DNA of 64,000 nt from the NCBI GenBank assembly GCA_036320915.1, contig JAXBDG010000015.1:992001-1056000 (forward strand), in the 5' to 3' direction. The DNA comes from Linnemannia elongata. Its lineage: Eukaryota; Mortierellomycota; Mortierellomycetes; Mortierellales; Mortierellaceae. The notes beneath the pieces are model-generated. The model was given only the letters and a program-made list of their open reading frames with translations. It did not search any database and had not been told where the DNA came from. Both the position numbers and the translations under genes were made by a program. Shown here piece by piece: positions 36,958 through 46,057 of the stretch. How positions within the stretch are numbered: position 1 is the stretch's first letter; each line of letters begins with the position of its first letter.

Positions 36958-38735
36958 CAACCAAGAATCTTGCCAACCTACTCCACTCCGACAAACCCTC
37001 ATTCGTTCTCGACAGGATGTGCTGTTGGCTGGAGATGAATGCAGATAACAAAATAACCATGGATGGGCAAGACGGCATTGGGCTCATTAGTGATCAAAAA
37101 CAAAAGAGAAGCGAGAGATCAGTACCCTGTTATATTCTCTGTCTCCCCTTGTGTCTCAAATGGCACCATCTTGCATGCATTTGCACAAAAACACGGAACA
37201 TCATCGTCCTAACCAATGGTCTTCTTCCCTCATTTCCCATCCAATTTCATTTTCATTAGGAAACCCTCCCCTTGATCTACACCCCCACCGTTGGCACCGC
37301 TTGCCAAAACTACTCTAATATTTACCCTTTCCTCGCTCCTCCCGGTCAGCCCGACGGTCTCTTCCTGTCCATCAACGATCTCCCCAACCTCACTCAGATC
37401 ATCCAGAACTACAGACCCTACCCTCAGAACCCTGAGCTCACTCCCCAGATTGCCGTCATCACTGACGGCTCCCGCATTCTCGGATTGGGCGATCTCGGTG
37501 TCGGCGGCATGGGTATCCCCGTCGGAAAGCTCCAGCTCTACGTCGCCGGTGCCGGTATCGATCCCCGCCGCACCATCCCCATCACCCTCGACCTCGGCAC
37601 CAACAACGAGGACAAGCTCAAGGACGAGTTCTACCTCGGATTGCGCCAGAAGCGTGTTGGGGACGATCAGTTCTTCCCCTTTGTTGATGCTGTCATTCAG
37701 TCCTTGACTTCTCTCTACCCCAAGTTGTTGATCCAGTTCGAGGACTTCTCTTCCGAGCACGCCTTCCAGCTCCTCGAAAAGTACCAGCCCACCAACTTTT
37801 GCTTTAACGATGATATTCAGGGAACTGGCGCTGTCATCTTGGCTGGATTCATGAACGCCATCAACCTTGCCGGAATTCCCGCCAAGGATCACAAGATTCT
37901 CTTCTTTGGAGCTGGATCCGCTGCTGTCGGTGTTGCCAAGCAGTTGGCTGCCTACTTTGTCAACGACCACGGCATGAGTGAGGACGAGGCCCGTGAGATG
38001 GTCTGGTTGGTCGACTCCAAGGGTCTTGTCACTCTCGACCGTGGCGATCGCTTGGCCGAGCACAAGTTGTACTTTGCCCGTAAGGATAACTCTGGCTCCC
38101 AGTACCCCGACATTGCCTCCGTCATTGAACACGTCCGCCCCACCGCCTTGTTCGGTCTCTCTTCCCAGTCTGGTGCCTTCTCTGAGCAGGTCTTGAAGTC
38201 CATGGCCGGCTTGAACGAGCGCCCCATTGTCTTCCCCCTGTCCAATCCCGCCTACCAGGCCGAGTGCTCGTTCGAGCAGGCCATGACTCACACCAAGGGC
38301 AAGGTCATCTTTGCTTCTGGCACTGCCTTCCCCAAGTACACCGACCCCAACACTGGTCTCATCAGCGCTCCTGGCCAGGGCAACAACATGTACATCTTCC
38401 CCGGTCTTGGTTTGGGAGGCATCCTCGCCCAGCCCGATACCATTAGCGACCGCTTGATCTACTCGGCTGCCCGTGCCTGTGCTAATGCCTTGACTGTTGA
38501 GGAGCGCTCGCAGGGACTCCTTTACCCCGTCTTGCCCCGCATTCGCCAAGTCTCTGCTGAGGTTGCTGCTGCCGTCGTTGCAGAGTCTGTTGCCGAGGGT
38601 ACTGCCCGGAATGAGGAGGTTATCAAGTTGGTCAACGCCCATGACAGGAGTGCCCTGTTGAAGTTTGTCACCAGCAACATGTGGACCACCAACGAGGTTG
38701 AGAACGAAATCACCACCTTTGCCCCTCACCTGTAA
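34851..38735 (+). CDS. NAD(P)-dependent malic enzyme
   Basis: Three exons: 34851-35358, 35995-36200 and 37260-38735, GT-AG, phases consistent, for 729 residues. The enzyme decarboxylates malate to pyruvate, making NAD(P)H; in oleaginous Mortierella relatives it is linked to lipid synthesis. The malic domain has YTPTVGTACQNYSNIYPF near residue 245, DGSRILGLGDLGVGGMGI and FNDDIQGTGAV near 420 with the metal-binding Asp pair. The NAD-binding domain has LFFGAGSAAVGVAKQL, and the C-terminus is complete (FPGLGLGGI, LYPVLPRIRQVS). Residues 1-147 are an unusual Ser/Thr-rich extension, largely lacking acidic residues, ending before an internal ATG at 35292 (MTVSETNNIHIQQIAKSSYL) that would give a normal 582-residue enzyme. 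Intron 2 is long (1059 bp) and contains a CTA microsatellite at 36909-36956. Confidence 0.9.
36909..36956. repeat. CTA/TAC trinucleotide microsatellite
   Basis: About 16 uninterrupted ACT units inside intron 2 of the malic enzyme gene. Non-coding. Confidence 0.85.
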
Positions 38736-38869
38736 AAAAGAAAAAGAACCCCCCGCATCTCCTTTTTTTCCCTATCCCTCTGCCTTTGTAAATTTATCCA
38801 TAGTCCCGCCACACAAACGAAACACACAATAATATTCCTTTTCACAAAAGCATTGACCCGCCTTTGTTC

Positions 38870-38878
38870 CTTCGTTCC
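38870..38878. repeat. Target-site duplication, left copy (9 bp)
   Basis: CTTCGTTCC directly before the left terminal inverted repeat. The identical 9-mer follows the right terminus at 43568-43576. Confidence 0.75.
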
Positions 38879-38901
38879 GGCTGCAGGACAATTGGCGCCA
38901 A
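38879..38901 (+). repeat. Left terminal inverted repeat of the Fanzor element
   Basis: GGCTGCAGGACAATTGGCGC and the next few bases. Pairs with 43546-43567 in inverted orientation. Confidence 0.7.
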
Positions 38902-38989
38902 AATGACGTCACCGGAGTGGCGTCATCGTGGAACTAATCCCCACAATCCAGCACTAATGCGTGGTTTCATTCACGCGTAAAAATCTAGT
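38902..38989 (-). ncRNA. Candidate guide-RNA (omega-RNA) scaffold region after the Fanzor stop codon
   Basis: In the sense strand of the Fanzor gene, the 110 bases between the stop codon and the element end can form two hairpins. The first (38957-38978) has a 7-bp stem GCGTG/CACGC plus flanking pairs. The second (38903-38926) has 10-base arms with one C-A mismatch closing C(UCCG)G, a UNCG-class tetraloop. Known Fanzor and TnpB guide RNAs arise from exactly this place, with the scaffold ending at the transposon end and the guide read from flanking DNA. Expression is not shown; the call rests on position and folding by eye. Confidence 0.4.
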
Positions 38990-41900
38990 CTAAGCTCGGG
39001 TCGATTTGCCCCTCCTGCCCTTTTCCTGACTGGAAACTGTGGAAGCCCTCTTACGACGTGACGGGGCGCGACTGGAAGACCTGCTGCTGCTTGCTGCCGT
39101 GGTGCTGCTTGTCGCCGTACTGCTTGCCGCCGTGGTACTGCTTGCTGCCATGTTGCTTGAACTTGTACTGGAACTCGCCATCCATGGGTATGATCCATCT
39201 GCTGCAAGCGGCTGCAGGTGCTTGGGCCTCTCGAAGGTCTTGAGCCGGTGTAGAACAATCTCGCACATGTTCTGAGCAGCCATCGTGTCACGATGAAAGT
39301 ACCGCTTGCACGAGTAGCAATAAAAACTCCGAAGGGTCACTTGCGCAATGAACTCGGTACATCGGGGGCACTTCTTCGATGTGTAGTATTCATTAATACC
39401 GACTACGACATAGCCTAGGGAGCGCACCTAAACATTGAGAGTCAAAGAGTACATTAGTTTTCAACACTTGAATTATATCAGCGATGTTATCAACGACTTT
39501 GATGACAAAGGCTTACCGTTTGGACAAAGTACGAGAGAAATGTGGAGTGCAATGTCGAAAGCTTGGAGTTGCTGGAAAACTGGCCCAAGCCAACTCCAAA
39601 CAAAATGGGATCCTTATCCTCATTGTCTTCGACTCGTCGACCAAGACTTCCTCCAACCACATTCAGCAACCTCTCGGCAAGGGCCTGATATTCTGCTTGC
39701 TTGGCCCTCTCCAAGTCCCACGCATGCTTCTTGTAACGATTGTCATCCCCAGCATAGAACTTCTTCAGACGTGTCTCAACCAGCTCCAACTCCTCCACAT
39801 AGTTCATAACGCTTCCTGACTGTCCTCTCAGGGGTGGCAAACGGGACTCAAGATCCGCAACAGACTCCTCTTCACCTTCAGGAGTCACCCCCTTCTCGTA
39901 CTCGAGCCACCTACGATGTCGAAATACTGGCTGGTAGATAGCCTTCTGCTTAACAGCCAGATTGTAGAAGGGAGGCTGGGATGAGTCGCCACGCGGATCC
40001 GTTACTGGGTCATGAACGGGAGTCGAGACCAGATCTGGCACTGGAAATGGGTTGGTCATCAGTTCATCTGCTGCCTCCTGACAAGACAAAACGATACCCT
40101 CCATGCACAAGCCCCCAGTTGCTTTCTCCTTGCCCTTGCACTCATCGTCCAGATCCTTAGGCAAATACGCAAAGCCACCGACCACGCAAACTTGACCGCC
40201 ATCCAAGGTAACGATCTTCATGTCATCTACGTTCTTTCCTGGCCACAACTTGGCGATGTCCTCCTTGGACTGAATGACGTTGCGGATTTCAGAGAGGTAA
40301 TAGTCGGACCCGGCAACCGTGGTAGTCAGCCTTGGAGGGAGATCATCCTCGGGTAATCTCCTGAACCGCGCATCTTGACGCTCTCGAAGCTTAAAAGCAG
40401 TGAGCTGGAGTCTAAATCCATCCGTTCGTAGTGATCCATGGGGTATGTAGCCCTTTTGGTGATAGTCCTTGGGCTTCGTACGCTCAACAAATTGAAGGTG
40501 ATCCTGAATCTCACTCAACGACCGAAGATTGATTGCGGCGCGGTGTCCAGTTTTGCGCCTCTGTCGGTTCGACAGGCCGGTGGGATCGATGTCGCAGACG
40601 AAATTCTTGATTATAAATCCCGGCTCCTTCCCACCGATCCAGGTTTCCAGGTCATTTGTTGAAGTAACAGTGGCGGGGTTGTCCTGGTCCAATGAAGCCA
40701 ACTCCACCAGCCTCTGCCGCAACGAGTCTCGCTTCCAAAAGAAGCTAGCCAGTTCTCTCTCTGAAAAAGTAACAAATCCCTGCTGCGACGAGGTGAGGGG
40801 TGTGATCCGCCACTTGTTTGGATGCATGTCGTTGAGAGCAATGAAATTTTCCGCTGCTGATATGTTTTCCTGAATGCTGAAGTCGATATATGCCTCAACT
40901 TGCCCCTTGTCCTTCAGAGTGCACACCTACAATAAAACAGATAAACATCAGTTATATGCTTGCTTGTAATGAGGACCTCTATTAGAGTAATCGTCAATGG
41001 GAATCATATCATTACCTTATCGTACAACAAATGGGTTCCATTACGATAATGCTTCTTGAGTTCAACAGAAAGCTGACTAGCCGTGGACCGCACCAGCATG
41101 CTCGGCGTGAACGACATACTGGCATTGATCTCGCCTCGATTCCGAGAGGCATCGAATAGTTCAAGGTCGACCAAGATCCCGACAAACTTGTCGACTGCTT
41201 TACCCATAGCAGAGTTTTTGTTGGGAAGATTCTCCGAGTATAGGTACGTCAAAAAGGTCTCAAGGAACTTCACACATTTGTCGGTCTCCTCATCAAGATC
41301 CGATTGGCCAGCATCCTTCTGACCGCCGTCGAGTCCATTATCTTTGTCAACTTTGGGCTTGATCCTCTCGCAGAGAAAATCCAGAACCACTCGCTCATCA
41401 TCCGATACCGCCTCGCGTCTCGCCTTTAACCGATCAGACTCCAACAAAGCCTCGCCATTTTTCTTTCTCCTAGCCTCGACCACCGCATCCTCAATACGAG
41501 TCCGCAACGTCTCCAGAAAGCGACCAATAAGGCGTTGGGCCTTCCTCTTGATGTCCACTGCCAGCTGGGAACCCTCCTTCAGACATTTCGCCACCTCCCC
41601 CTGCAGCTCCGGCGAAAGCGACGACACTCGCCTAGTGTTAGCCTCCAACGTTCCGACCTCAAGAGAAACTGTGGGATGATGCCAGCCGAGTGACTTAGAG
41701 AGCCTCTGCTTGTCAGTCATCTTGGATGCCCTCAGGCCAGCAGCAGATGGTGCCTTGTCCGACTTCTGCTTGTCTTTGCTGTCCGTGGTGTCAGTGGTGG
41801 GTGAGTCACTTATGGAATGGGACATCGCCTTGGGAGCCTTCCACGCGAGCTGCTTGGCTCTTGCAGGAGGCTCATGGCTCACGCTCCCCTGGTATCGCTT

Positions 41901-43319
41901 GAAAGAAAACCGTTGGCTGTGTCGGGGTATTCGTGTCCTAGGCAGTGCTGGATGGCCAAGGTTTTCCTGACCCAAAGGAGTAAAAGTAGGCTCCTGGGGG
42001 AAGCCGGGCTGATGCTCTGAAGGGGTTCCAGAGGCCTTGGAGATCTGTCTTGGCGATTCCACAGTACGGTAGCGATTCCAGGATCTTGGCACTCGCAGAC
42101 GTATAATCTCATCACTGGTTTCTCTATATTATTAATCAAGTGTAATGAGAAATAATTCACATGATTGCTTCCTCAAAATAAGCTTTGCAAATTATCAGTG
42201 AAAATACCTCAGATGCAGCTCCTGTATACGGATGCGTTTGAGCTCGTTATGCCGGGTACACAGATCCTTGAAGTGAAGATGCAGTTGCTCATACAGGGTC
42301 TGAGCATCTGATGTGGAATCGACTCTGTTAAGTTTTGTTTGACGCTTGTCGATAAACACGCGAATAGAGTCCTCAAACTCCTTCTTTTCCTTGTTTTTCG
42401 AGATGACTCGAGTGTCCGCCAGATAGCTGTGCACCACCTCCTTAGGGTCTATATAATAAAAAAGAAAGACATTAAGCGCAGTTAGTTCTCAATGTAAAGA
42501 TAGCAAGAACATTCAGACCTGGAAATAGAAACATATTCGATCATTACCCATGCTGTTGATGGACTTGACAATAGAGAAGTTCGTGGCTGGACCAAGAGAC
42601 CAAATATTCTTGTTGTAATCGTTTTTGGACACTACTGCAAGTGCGGTGAGCTGAGCGCGGGTGATGCCGAGGGCCAAGAGGAGGTCAGGGATGGAGTAAA
42701 CCAGGATCATGTCGTTTGAAACGGGGCGCCACAAAGTCACGATAGATCCATAGGCGAGCATATCTGAATCATGGGAGATGATAATGTCCTCTGGGTTTGC
42801 GTCGATAGCGATTGCCAAGTCAGCCTCTGTTGCCACAACCTGGACTGTCCAGCCTCGTTCTGTCATATAATCCGCAAAGCTCCTCCGGCTCTCCATCGAC
42901 CAGTAGAAGGAGGAGGCTAAACCTGAGCGGACGTCGGCAAAATGGCGTTTTCTAAGACGTTGATTGTTGTCGATGCGTGATTCGAGAGTGGTTAGGCTCG
43001 TTGCTGTTTGCTCCAGAGCTTTCTCTCGCCGTTTTTGGCGCTCGGCTGCGGTCTCACTCTTCTCCATGGCCGGGTCCCCATCAATGTAAAGAGTCATGTT
43101 CAACGCCGTTCCGAACCGACTGACTTCCTTCTCCAGACTGCGGTGGGCGGCGTCTTGCGACATGTTGGAGTAAGAGCTCCTGATGACATTATAGCACGAC
43201 CCAAGAACATCCAGTCGCCGTCGACCGTTGGTGATGATGCTCGCGAGTATTGATCGGTAAAGTTGGACAGGTGTGTAGCCCTTGCGTCGAATGAAAGGGT
43301 ACCAGTCGAATAGTCCCAT
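38990..43319 (-). CDS. FEN1/XPG-like PIN nuclease fused to Fanzor/TnpB-like RuvC nuclease
   Basis: Five exons: 43319-42548, 42448-42208, 42123-41016, 40926-39517 and 39427-38990, all GT-AG with consistent phases, for 1322 residues without a break. Residues 1-260 are a FEN1/XPG-like PIN domain: start MGLFDWYPFIRRKG, then IDGDPAMEK (Asp80, Asp82), ATEADLAIA (Glu165, Asp167), SHDSDMLAY (Asp184, Asp186) and SKNDYNKNI (Asp234), i.e. the full acidic metal-binding set. A charged linker of about 400 residues follows. The C-terminal 600 residues are TnpB/Fanzor-like: RTDGFRLQ, RuvC-I in KIVTLDGGQ (Asp949), a Glu just before the zinc ribbon (INEYYTSKK, Glu1190), zinc ribbon Cys1197, 1200, 1214 and 1217, and RuvC-III in HRDTMAAQNM (Asp1224). 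Glu beside the ribbon rather than mid-domain matches the rearranged RuvC site reported for Fanzors. The Ser-rich basic tail may serve nuclear import. By family it would be an RNA-guided DNA endonuclease with a second, flap-type nuclease attached. Confidence 0.8.
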
Positions 43320-43545
43320 TATGAAGGATACTTCATGTGATGGAAGTAATGGATGTGTCGTAAAAGGACTTGGGGAAGTAGAAAGAAAAAGAAAAAGTAG
43401 GTCGAATAAGAGCTCAAAAGCAGTGAATAAAGATACTGGGTCAAATGATTGTGCCGATATTCAATGTAATTTAGTGTCAATTGACAGTAACTGCCGATCC
43501 ATATTAGGAAATATTTCATGCATAGCTTCAGCCAATAAGAGAATT

Positions 43546-43567
43546 ATGGCGTCCATTGTCCTGCACC
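43546..43567 (-). repeat. Right terminal inverted repeat of the Fanzor element
   Basis: Reads TGGCGTCCATTGTCCTGCACC on the plus strand, the inverted counterpart of 38879-38901. Confidence 0.7.
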
Positions 43568-43576
43568 CTTCGTTCC
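43568..43576. repeat. Target-site duplication, right copy (9 bp)
   Basis: CTTCGTTCC, identical to 38870-38878. Confidence 0.75.
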
Positions 43577-44158
43577 GCGTGTCGTACTGGAATTTCTAGG
43601 AATCGCAATTGCATCCTCCACCCACGAGGGACAATTTTTTCTCTTTTTCCCAGTGAGCGTTCTGCATCCCTTTCTGTGTCCCTTTTTGTGTGTCTAGAGC
43701 GGCAACAATTTGTTTGTTTTCTCTTGCTCCTTCCTCCTCTCTTTTTTCACACTTCTTTCTCCCCTCCCATACACATATACATATTGCCATCCACCCTTGC
43801 TTGTTCCCTCCTTCCTCCTCCTCCTCCTCCTCCTCCTCCTCACCTTCGTCAGTGGTCAACCTCCCTTTTATCTTCAAAACCCACTTGGCCGTCCCGACAA
43901 CCTAACTCATCCTTCTTACACTCCCTCATCCTTCATCCATCTTTTTGACTCTTCTTCATACACATTCAATTACCCATCCCGACCCGACACTCATCCAACA
44001 TACCAAAAACACAACAATACTCAACTCTCTCTCTTACACACACAGCACTCATAAAACTCATACAGGACATACTCTGACGCGTTTTTTTTCCGGCACTCAA
44101 CAGGACCAGGAATTTTGCCCACCTCACACTGCATATACACATATTCTAGACCCTCATC
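43577..44158. other. Promoter and leader of the sirtuin gene
   Basis: CT-rich leader with a CCT microsatellite at 43807-43841 (about ten units) and CA-rich sequence up to the ATG. No TATA box is seen. Confidence 0.5.
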
Positions 44159-44613
44159 ATGTTGACGATCGACCTCAGCCAGCAATCGCAGGACGTCTTG
44201 TCGGATAGACACCTCCAAAAAGTGACCGACGTCATGCTCAAGGCTAAAAAGACCATTGTTGTTACCGGTGCAGGCATTTCTTGCAGCAGTGGTATTCCGG
44301 TAGGTCTTCAAGCCTAGTTTTTTTTTCTATTGTCTTTCAGCTGTCGTAAGCTACCAGTGGCTCTCTTTCTGAGAGCATAGTGCACCCTTTCTCTTTTGGT
44401 TGTGTATCGTCTCTTCCGCTCTTTCTTCCTGTGCTGACTGTGGAGCTACCGACACCACCCACCCTTTGTCTTTTTTTTTGTTGTTGTTTTTCAACAGTGT
44501 TAAGCTGAAAATATCATGACTGGCAGATGGATTGAATGGATTAAGGAGGCACAAACTTTCTAGACTTCTGTTTGTATTTTTTCATGGTGGTCCTTCTGCT
44601 CCTTTTTTCTTAA

Positions 44614-44644
<31 letters not shown>

Positions 44645-46057
44645 CTTTTTTTTTCTTTATTTTTCTTTTTTTGCATACACACACCTCGTTCCCACTTGTT
44701 TCTTTACCCCCTTTTTTTCCGACTGCATAATGATGGCAATTGGTTCTCCTTTTGTTACCTTCCAATAGGATTTCCGCTCAGCAGATGGATTATACAATCT
44801 GGTCAAGAAACAATATCCCGACACAGTTTTGAAGGGCAAGGATCTTTTCGATGCCAACCTGTTCCGCGACTGTAAAACCACGGCAGTCTTTTACACCTTC
44901 ATCTCGGAGCTTCATGCTCAGACACTGAAGGCCAAGCCAACACCTACCCACCACTTTATCAAGATGCTTTCGGAACGCGGCAAGCTCCTGCGGTGCTACA
45001 CACAGAACATTGATTGTCTTGAGGAGGAGCTGGGGATGGATACGAGTCTGGTGTGCGACAAGGGCAAGGTCAAGAAGGATGTCAATGTAGTTCAGCTTCA
45101 TGGATCCCTTAGGAGGCTCAAGTGCACACTCTGCAGTGAGCCTTATGGCTTCCAGACAGATTACCAGAAGGTTTTCAAGGAGGGAGATGCACCCGGCTGC
45201 CCAAAGTGCGAGCTGTATGGTAAGTTGAGAGGAATTTGAAACAATCAAACAAACAATATCTGACCAGTCAATTCATTCGGACTGGTTGATAGGATGCTAG
45301 CGATTGATCAAAGAAAAAACGACAATGAATTAATTTTTTCTTTTTAATTTGAATCTTATTAGATGGTATTCGTGTTGCGCAAGGAAAGCGGAAGGTGGCT
45401 ACAGGAACATTGCGACCAGATATTGTTCTTTACAATGAAAACCACCCATTTGGAGATGCGATTGGCAAGATTCAGAGTAGCGATCTTTCGCGGTCACCAG
45501 ATGTCCTGTTGGTGATGGGAACTTCGCTCAAAGTCCATGGATTGCGTCTGTTGGTCAGGAAGGCAGCCAAGATTGTGCATGGGAACAAGAAGGGATGCGT
45601 CATCTTGGTCAACAAGACCCCTGTTGTCGGCAAGGAGTGGGCAGGCGTGTTTGACTACTTTGTCGAGGGCGAGACGGACGGTTGGTGCAGCATTGTCGAG
45701 AACGCGATTCGTCAGGTTAAGGTCCAGACCAAGTTGCCGTTCAAGCCCTTGACCCCTACTCAGACGGATGCGCAGACACAGATGGCGAAGGTAATGACAG
45801 ACGAAGCAGTGATGGGCGAGAAGGAGTCGGAGAAGATGAAGAAGAGGTCTGTCGTGAAGAAGACGAACGAGAAGAAGACGGGGGAGAAGAAGTCGGCAGA
45901 GACGAAAAGGACTGTGACCAGGTCAACAGCAGCAGCAGAGAAGACGGTTGTTAAGCGGAAGCGTGTCCAGGACAAAGAGAACCAGCTTCCTCTGGCGTTC
46001 ACAAAGAAGCAGAAGGCAACCACCGCAACCAGGGCATTGGCATCAAAGAAGGTCTAA
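44159..46057 (+). CDS. NAD-dependent histone deacetylase, Hst3/Hst4-type sirtuin
   Basis: Three exons: 44159-44299, 44769-45219 and 45363-46057, GT-AG, phases consistent, for 428 residues. The NAD pocket is VVTGAGISCSSGIPDFRSAD (residues 34-53). TQNID lies at 125-129, the catalytic His158 in VVQLHGSL, zinc Cys166, 169, 191 and 194, and VMGTSLKVHGLRLLV completes the Rossmann fold. The Cys-containing GAGISC and SSDGLY-like continuation place it with fungal Hst3/Hst4, which remove acetyl groups from histone H3 Lys56 after replication. The C-terminal 110 residues are Lys/Glu-rich and basic (KRKRVQDKEN), a likely nuclear-localisation tail. Intron 1 carries a 29-base poly(T). Confidence 0.87.
44616..44644. 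repeat. Poly(T) homopolymer, 29 bases
   Basis: Inside intron 1 of the sirtuin gene, part of a longer T-rich stretch that precedes the acceptor by about 125 bases. Confidence 0.9.

What the first reader, a model, noticed from the sequence alone, without database searches (positions are those of the whole stretch)
38990..43319. PIN (FEN1/XPG-like) nuclease fused to a Fanzor-type RuvC nuclease in one intact gene
One uninterrupted, phase-consistent five-exon reading frame of 1322 codons carries two complete nuclease catalytic sets. The N-terminal PIN set is Asp80/82, Glu165/Asp167, Asp184/186 and Asp234. The C-terminal RuvC set is Asp949, Glu1190 and Asp1224, with a four-Cys zinc ribbon at 1197-1217. 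The Glu next to the ribbon fits the rearranged active site reported for Fanzors. I do not recall a described Fanzor family with an attached flap-endonuclease domain. One reading is that the RNA-guided nuclease nicks or cuts while the PIN domain trims flaps during mobilisation or repair.
Basis: partly seen in the sequence, partly recalled or inferred. Interest (0 to 1): 0.95.

Follow-up and report, generated by a model that had tools for sequence, protein, structure and literature searches.

The report
Two-nuclease fusion carried by fungal transposon
A soil fungus carries a transposon whose gene joins a nuclease of the FEN1/EXO1 DNA-repair type to a Fanzor, a eukaryotic cousin of CRISPR-Cas12, and the same fusion occurs in at least eight related fungal genera, which suggests a natural RNA-guided cutter with a built-in DNA-end processor.

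Summary

The gene lies in a 4690-bp element (38879-43568) with 26-nt inverted ends and 8-bp target duplications; seven copies at 97-100% identity, four intact. Diverged families, down to about 30% identity, and 13 aligned database proteins from eight Mortierellaceae genera keep the domain order. None of 10 literature searches showed a description.

New here: a TGACGTCAC-like motif at a fixed place on the 5' side only (11 of 20 insertions), possibly a TAM; and a 3'-terminal hairpin, a candidate guide-RNA scaffold with weak covariation support. Function is inferred: RNA-guided cutting, then 5'-end processing that favours repair by copying. No transcript was available and no transposase was identified.

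The parts
38879..43568 (-). mobile element, 4690 bp; the PIN-Fanzor gene is the only gene recognised in it (ORF list, not searched exhaustively)
   Evidence: DNA search: 6 further copies at 97-100% identity; all 6 share the low end, 4 of 6 the high end, two stop short there
38879..38904 (.). terminal inverted repeat, 3' end of the element (gene sense)
   Evidence: 26-nt arm, 85% complementary to 43543-43568, the longest pair in the list of the region
43543..43568 (.). terminal inverted repeat, 5' end of the element
   Evidence: shared by other families
38871..38878 (.). 8-bp target-site duplication TTCGTTCC, low side
   Evidence: sequence; 8-bp duplications in 5 of 5 copies read at both ends, the window copy included
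43569..43576 (.). 8-bp target-site duplication TTCGTTCC, high side
   Evidence: sequence
42548..43319 (-). exon 1, residues 1-257: FEN1/EXO1/XPG-like PIN nuclease core
42208..42448 (-). exon 2, residues 258-337: conserved extension of the PIN part (to about residue 300) and start of the linker
41016..42123 (-). exon 3, residues 338-707: less conserved linker (about 338-520) and N-terminal part of the Fanzor fold (from about 521)
39517..40926 (-). exon 4, residues 708-1177: further Fanzor fold including RuvC Asp949
38990..39427 (-). exon 5, residues 1178-1322: RuvC Glu1190, four-Cys zinc ribbon (1197-1217), Asp1224, Ser/Ala-rich tail with basic patches
38879..38949 (-). candidate omega-RNA scaffold: 3'-terminal hairpin that ends at the element terminus; the guide would be the flank that follows
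   Evidence: suggestive only (for this copy 21 of 200 shuffles fold as well)
43579..43587 (-). 5'-flank motif GTACGACAC at the place where other insertions have TGACGTCAC (6 of 9 matching here): candidate TAM or insertion-site motif

Best explanation
It is a two-nuclease Fanzor1: one polypeptide with an N-terminal FEN1/EXO1/XPG-family (PIN) nuclease, a linker, and a complete C-terminal Fanzor1, encoded by a DNA transposon of Mortierellaceae that needs a transposase in trans. Mechanism, in steps. (1) A transposase moves the element by its inverted ends and leaves 8-bp duplications (ends and duplications shown; transposase inferred). (2) The 3' end of the element is transcribed as a short hairpin scaffold that runs into the flank, whose bases become the guide (hairpin predicted from sequence; RNA and guide inferred from how Fanzor and TnpB work). 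(3) The Fanzor part, primed with that RNA, recognises the empty donor site or the empty allele next to a TGACGTCAC-like motif and cuts it with RuvC (predicted fold and active site shown; cutting inferred). (4) The PIN part then removes the 5'-ended strand or flap at the break, as EXO1 or FEN1 do, so that ends are not simply rejoined and repair copies the element back from the sister or homologue (predicted fold and active site shown; role inferred).
Against: No transcript was seen; two public models from contigs whose lengths match this genome's C1 and C31 split the gene in different ways (P0044 joins across intron 3 but starts late and ends at intron 4, P0046 ends at intron 3). The Fanzor-part model is of a homologue, with mean pLDDT 70.1 and modest Foldseek TM-scores (0.30-0.41 of the query for the six). 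Hairpin: only 1 of 13 pairs changed on both sides, and in three of six families 6 to 21 of 200 shuffles fold as well; a palindromic DNA site could explain the conserved core. Flank motif: 9 of 20 insertions fall below 7/9 at that place (one of them has it perfect but shifted by one base, two score 6, the window copy among them); it was first noticed in some of these same flanks, and a transposase preference would explain it too. That the PIN part resects Fanzor breaks has no direct evidence.
Confidence: 0.55

Rival explanations
1. The PIN domain works on RNA: it trims the omega-RNA or degrades the RNA of the R-loop, and has no role at the DNA break.
For: Many PIN domains are ribonucleases (recalled); XRN1 and XRN2 are among the structural neighbours; a hairpin would sit in the transcript.
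Confidence: 0.15
2. The PIN domain serves the transposition step, not the RNA-guided cut: it trims 5' flaps or opens hairpins at excision or integration by a trans-acting transposase.
For: The gene travels in an element with inverted ends and 8-bp duplications, a length typical of hAT transposons, whose donor ends form hairpins (both recalled); 44 hAT dimerisation-domain matches lie in the genome.
Against: No transposase gene was seen between two ends of this kind (few loci read). Fanzor ribbons without a detectable PIN upstream exist in the same genome (L033, L034, L038, L039), so a PIN may not be needed for Fanzor elements in general, unless it is too diverged to see.
Confidence: 0.2
3. The two halves are separate products: a PIN protein from exons 1-3 and a RuvC protein from exons 4-5, or alternative isoforms.
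For: One public model from a contig with the length of this genome's C31 (P0046) ends at intron 3 and holds the PIN part without RuvC; other database proteins (e.g. P0049, P0052, P0056) do so too.
Against: Intron 3 (residues 707/708) lies inside a predicted helix of the Fanzor fold, so exons 4-5 alone are not a whole Fanzor; the conserved frame breaks at the same place in L047, L048 and L049 (their splice sites were not checked one by one); the model P0044 and several models of other species join across it.
Confidence: 0.07
4. A decaying or domesticated gene without activity.
For: Of 7 close copies, L010 has a 1-nt deletion in the tail, L014 is broken in the 5' part and L015 has an early stop; homologue P0014 has Lys for Glu1190 and Gly for Asp184.
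Against: 4 of 7 copies intact at 99-100% identity, i.e. recent spread; catalytic residues conserved in homologues at 34-60% identity; dN/dS below 1 where it can be measured.
Confidence: 0.03

Closest known systems
Fanzor1 (SpuFz1, GtFz1, PpFz1)
   Same: Predicted fold over about residues 521-1251, Asp-Glu-Asp set with the Glu next to the ribbon, carriage by eukaryotic DNA transposons (PMC11423790 and PMC3627910, passages)
   Different: Fused to an N-terminal FEN1/XPG-family nuclease; 1322 aa. PpFz1's reported extra part is an insertion in RuvC that binds cyclophilin (PMC11423790, passages), not an N-terminal nuclease
Fanzor1 elements of Rhizopus, Phycomyces and Mucor with MuDr-like ends (ROr-4, PBl-3, MCi-4)
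   Same: Fanzor1 in fungal elements with inverted ends and without a MuDR transposase of their own (PMC3627910, passages)
   Different: 9-bp duplications there, 8-bp here; no PIN or XPG domain is mentioned in that main text by a term search
FEN1 / EXO1 / XPG(RAD2) / GEN1 superfamily
   Same: Fold and catalytic residues; Met-Gly start as expected for that family (recalled)
   Different: Known members are host repair enzymes or viral ones (recalled); none is known to me fused to an RNA-guided nuclease
TnpB and Cas12 effectors
   Same: RuvC plus zinc ribbon; guided_TnpB profile matched by 14 of 17 members, far below its curated cut-off for the query (27.9 against 100 bits)
   Different: Weaker structural match than Fanzor1

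Membership tests
Fanzor1 | RuvC Asp...Glu...Asp with the Glu close before the first CxxC of a four-Cys ribbon | tested here: met
   D949, E1190, C1197/1200/1214/1217, D1224; six residues lie between E1190 and C1197; definition in PMC10711439 (passages)
Fanzor1 | Zinc-ribbon TNB domain (PF07282) | tested here: met
   43.1 bits, cut-off 26.3; 14 of 17 members
Fanzor1 | Fanzor fold | tested here: met
Fanzor1 | Carried by a eukaryotic transposable element | tested here: met
   Inverted ends, 8-bp duplications, 7 close copies
Fanzor1 | omega-RNA from the 3' end of the element | tested here: inconclusive
   Hairpin in 6 of 6 families folded, weak covariation, no Rfam match, no RNA data
Fanzor1 | TAM beside the target | tested here: inconclusive
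   TGACGTCAC-like motif, >=7/9, at one offset in 11 of 20 5' flanks; at most 1 of 15 3' flanks at any one offset
Fanzor1 | RNA-guided DNA cleavage | not testable with these tools
   needs biochemistry
FEN1/XPG nuclease superfamily | Catalytic carboxylates and the Lys/Arg pair of the helical gateway | tested here: met
   D37, D80, E165, D167, D184, D186, D234, K87, R94; D80, K87 and R94 align with Asp, Lys and Arg of RAD2. Roles in FEN1 recalled; D37 is in 10 of the 12 rows that reach it
FEN1/XPG nuclease superfamily | Fold | tested here: met
FEN1/XPG nuclease superfamily | H2TH region after the last Asp | tested here: inconclusive
   Sequence aligns with RAD2 there, but residues 233-248 have pLDDT < 50 in the exon-1 model
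FEN1/XPG nuclease superfamily | Flap or 5'-exonuclease activity | not testable with these tools
   needs biochemistry
hAT transposon (as host of the gene) | 8-bp target duplication and a hAT transposase acting on these ends | tested here: inconclusive
   8-bp duplications seen; no transposase linked to these ends
MuDr/MULE transposon (as host of the gene) | 9-bp duplication and a MULE transposase | tested here: inconclusive
   8 bp here, not 9; of 24 MULE matches none is near an end listed

The most novel reading that the evidence does not exclude
A eukaryotic RNA-guided cut-and-resect homing system: a transposon-borne enzyme that carries both a programmable nuclease and its own 5'-end processing nuclease, uses a 3'-terminal hairpin as guide scaffold and an unusually long TAM (TGACGTCAC), and so forces copy-back repair at sites it has left or has not yet reached.
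Probability: 0.3. Interest if true: 0.93.

Novelty: new variant of a known kind. Interest (0 to 1): 0.83.

Why it matters
Engineers fuse exonucleases to Cas9 or Cas12 to bias repair (recalled); here evolution seems to have made and kept such a fusion. It makes an open question testable: what Fanzor does for its transposon after it cuts. It also gives a natural template for an editor with a built-in end processor, and a set of diverged sequences to learn from.

Tried and rejected
Considered and rejected: (a) chance open frames: the frame and residues recur in diverged families and other species. (b) Split gene: see rivals. (c) An autonomous version with a transposase: the 24 MULE and 44 hAT places (lower bounds by the tool's own note) were compared by eye with the sites; only C9 (hAT at 202412, end at 207590) and C27 (hAT at 509886, end at 513325) lie within about 6 kb. 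In C9 (L043) no second end of this kind was found beyond the hAT gene with up to 4 mismatches (one search lists other inverted repeats); the C27 hAT lies on the outer side of its end by coordinates, its DNA was not read. Other transposase families were not searched. (d) Rfam: no match in 38000-44500. (e) Covariation of the hairpin: not convincing (86.3% of cells paired against 25-44% for slid versions; but 10 of 500 shuffles reach that percentage, 24 of 500 the covariation score, and only 1 pair changed on both sides). (f) dN/dS across families: dS is saturated in most pairs, and the PIN values of L048 against the C4/C31 copies are unreliable because one tblastn piece seems to run across an intron. 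(g) Fusions outside Mortierellaceae: none among the named hits of three searches, but each scored only about 8000 candidates, so absence elsewhere is not shown. (h) The 2023 survey of Fanzors in Science Advances (doi 10.1126/sciadv.adk0171, recalled) is not held; its tables and all supplements went unchecked, so a PIN-Fanzor may be listed there without comment.

Selections made: alignment A1 used 16 of the 41 proteins, chosen for length and coverage; A2 holds 25 and A3 25 database proteins (P0003 first) of those found by then. The one search count used all 20 exact 5'-end sites (7 more sites with 2 mismatches were left out); its 15 3' flanks were those in hand.
Full report
WHAT IS THERE. The window (contig C7 of a 51.1-Mb genome, positions 992001-1056000) carries on its minus strand a five-exon gene. 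Joining 42548-43319, 42208-42448, 41016-42123, 39517-40926 and 38990-39427 gives 1322 codons and a stop, with four GT-AG introns of 84-99 nt. The host is very probably Linnemannia elongata: a database protein under that name (P0044) lies on a contig of 4809637 bases and another (P0046) on one of 2739884, exactly the lengths of C1 and C31 here.

ONE GENE. Intron 3 (residues 707/708) falls in a long predicted helix of the Fanzor part (model residues 160-195; the junction is at 189/190, read from the sequences). Exons 4-5 alone would thus be a broken Fanzor. The conserved frame breaks at the same place in L047, L048 and L049, families about 30-65% identical (splice sites not checked one by one). 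P0044 joins across it but starts late and ends at intron 4; P0046 ends at it, so public annotation of this genome is inconsistent. No transcript data were available.

MOBILE ELEMENT. A DNA search found six further copies of a 4.69-kb unit at 97-100% identity, on contigs C5, C28, C1, C27 (two) and C32; all share the low end, four of six the high end, and the copies on C32 and one on C27 stop short there. The element has 26-nt inverted ends (85% complementary) and an 8-bp duplication in 5 of 5 copies read at both ends, the window copy included. Window, L011, L012 and L013 are intact; L010 has a one-base deletion in the tail; L014 is broken at the 5' part; L015 has an early stop. The core of the ends occurs 51 times in the genome with up to 2 mismatches, against 3 for the reversed control. 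The genome has 54 PF07282 places, 53 over the cut-off. Families with a PIN part upstream of the Fanzor part are L046, L047, L048, L049 and L036, and in part the C4/C31 copies L019-L021, whose loci are cut off, down to about 25-30% identity. L033, L034, L038 and L039 show a Fanzor ribbon and no detectable PIN at E <= 0.001, so both kinds may coexist.

OTHER SPECIES. Three protein searches gave 41, 33 and 67 overlapping hits, each from about 8000 scored candidates. Every hit that bears an organism name belongs to one of nine genera listed under Mortierellaceae; 9 hits bear none. Among the 16 homologues of alignment A1, 13 reach the zinc ribbon and also hold PIN residues (some models start late, e.g. 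P0009 and P0016); they come from Linnemannia, Podila, Haplosporangium, Gryganskiella, Entomortierella, Mortierella, Dissophora and Benniella. Three (P0005, P0009, P0023) carry both Pfam domains in the precomputed annotation. The three that do not reach the ribbon are P0034, P0024 and P0015; the first two are marked partial. P0014 has lost Glu1190 and Asp184, P0007 and P0011 each one ribbon Cys.

SELECTION. With dS unsaturated, dN/dS is 0.135 (PIN), 0.49 (middle), 0.36 (RuvC) for window against L015, itself a copy with an early stop, and 0.35 (middle), 0.155 (RuvC) for L048 against L021. Most pairs between families are saturated.

TWO NEW SEQUENCE FEATURES. First, the 5' flank: of all 20 exact 5'-end sites, 11 have TGACGTCAC (7 or more of 9) at one fixed place, two bases before the 8-bp duplication where that is known, and a twelfth has it perfect but shifted by one; at any offset more than one base away the maximum is 1 of 20, and in 15 3' flanks it is 1. 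The motif was first noticed in some of these same flanks, so the count describes it and is not an independent test; the offsets and the 3' flanks are the controls. The window copy matches 6 of 9. One-sidedness is what a TAM would give, but an asymmetric insertion preference would look the same. The 3' ends of the families seen hold a related motif inside (AAATKACGTCACCG), and L051 is inserted beside such a sequence. Second, the 3' end of the element, in gene sense, folds as a hairpin around that motif in the 6 families folded (z-scores -1.5, -3.1, -4.2, -2.1, -1.8, -5.1; shuffles folding as well 21, 0, 0, 6, 10, 0 of 200). The apical loop is of UNCG type (UUCG or UCCG) in 4 of these 6. Pairing is kept (86% of cells) but covariation is weak, and no Rfam family matches.

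MECHANISM. Shown: gene, predicted folds, active-site residues, element ends, copies, conservation. Inferred: splicing in vivo, guide RNA, TAM, cutting, 5' processing, repair bias. The reading preferred here is that the Fanzor part cuts empty sites and the PIN part, whose best structural relatives are EXO1 and FEN1 on an equal footing, trims the 5' strand so that repair copies the element. I put the architecture at 0.95, RNA-guided cutting at about 0.75 and the resection role at about 0.45; these are judgements.

LITERATURE. All 10 searches of the library were used. Fanzor alone gave 82 papers (40 listed, titles and starts of abstracts seen). Fanzor with Mortierell, XPG or Mucoromycota, TnpB with Mortierella, and TnpB with flap endonuclease and fungi each gave none. 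The broader ones listed 12 of 114, 4 of 4, 1 of 1 and 10 of 88 papers, none on such a fusion by title. Passages of PMC10711439, PMC3627910 and PMC11423790 were read by term, and a term search of PMC10432273 found nothing. They report Fanzor1 in fungal elements with inverted ends and a cyclophilin-binding insertion in PpFz1; the terms for PIN, XPG or FEN1 that I tried in three of them gave no match. Supplements and papers not held were not seen.

Noticed in passing
L043:6387-7080 (G000 C9): A perfect inverted repeat of 336 nt with a 22-nt spacer lies just inside a 5' end of this kind; hAT-type ORFs bounded by tandem repeats are further along the locus.
   Followed up: partly
L033, L034, L038, L039: Other Fanzor-type zinc ribbons in the same genome without a detectable PIN domain upstream.
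   Followed up: partly
L036 (G000 C9:871035-878708): A very diverged PIN (28% identity, E 7e-14) upstream of a diverged Fanzor (about 25% identity) in the same orientation: the fusion may be older than the families aligned here.
   Followed up: no
L050, L051: Insertions that lie beside sequences resembling the 3' end of related elements (TTACGTCACCG / AAAATGACGTCACCGAAG): possible preference for inserting next to each other.
   Followed up: no
P0013 and P0050 (Linnemannia hyalina KI688_007301/007302): Two PIN-Fanzor relatives with consecutive locus tags: perhaps tandem or neighbouring copies.
   Followed up: no
window 37260-38735 (+) and 44769-46057 (+): Open frames on either side look like a malic enzyme and a Sir2-type deacetylase (recalled from the sequence, not tested); the element begins about 140 bp past the first one's stop.
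   Followed up: no
G000 C1, C31: Public gene models from contigs of these lengths cut genes of this kind at different places (P0044, P0046).
   Followed up: partly
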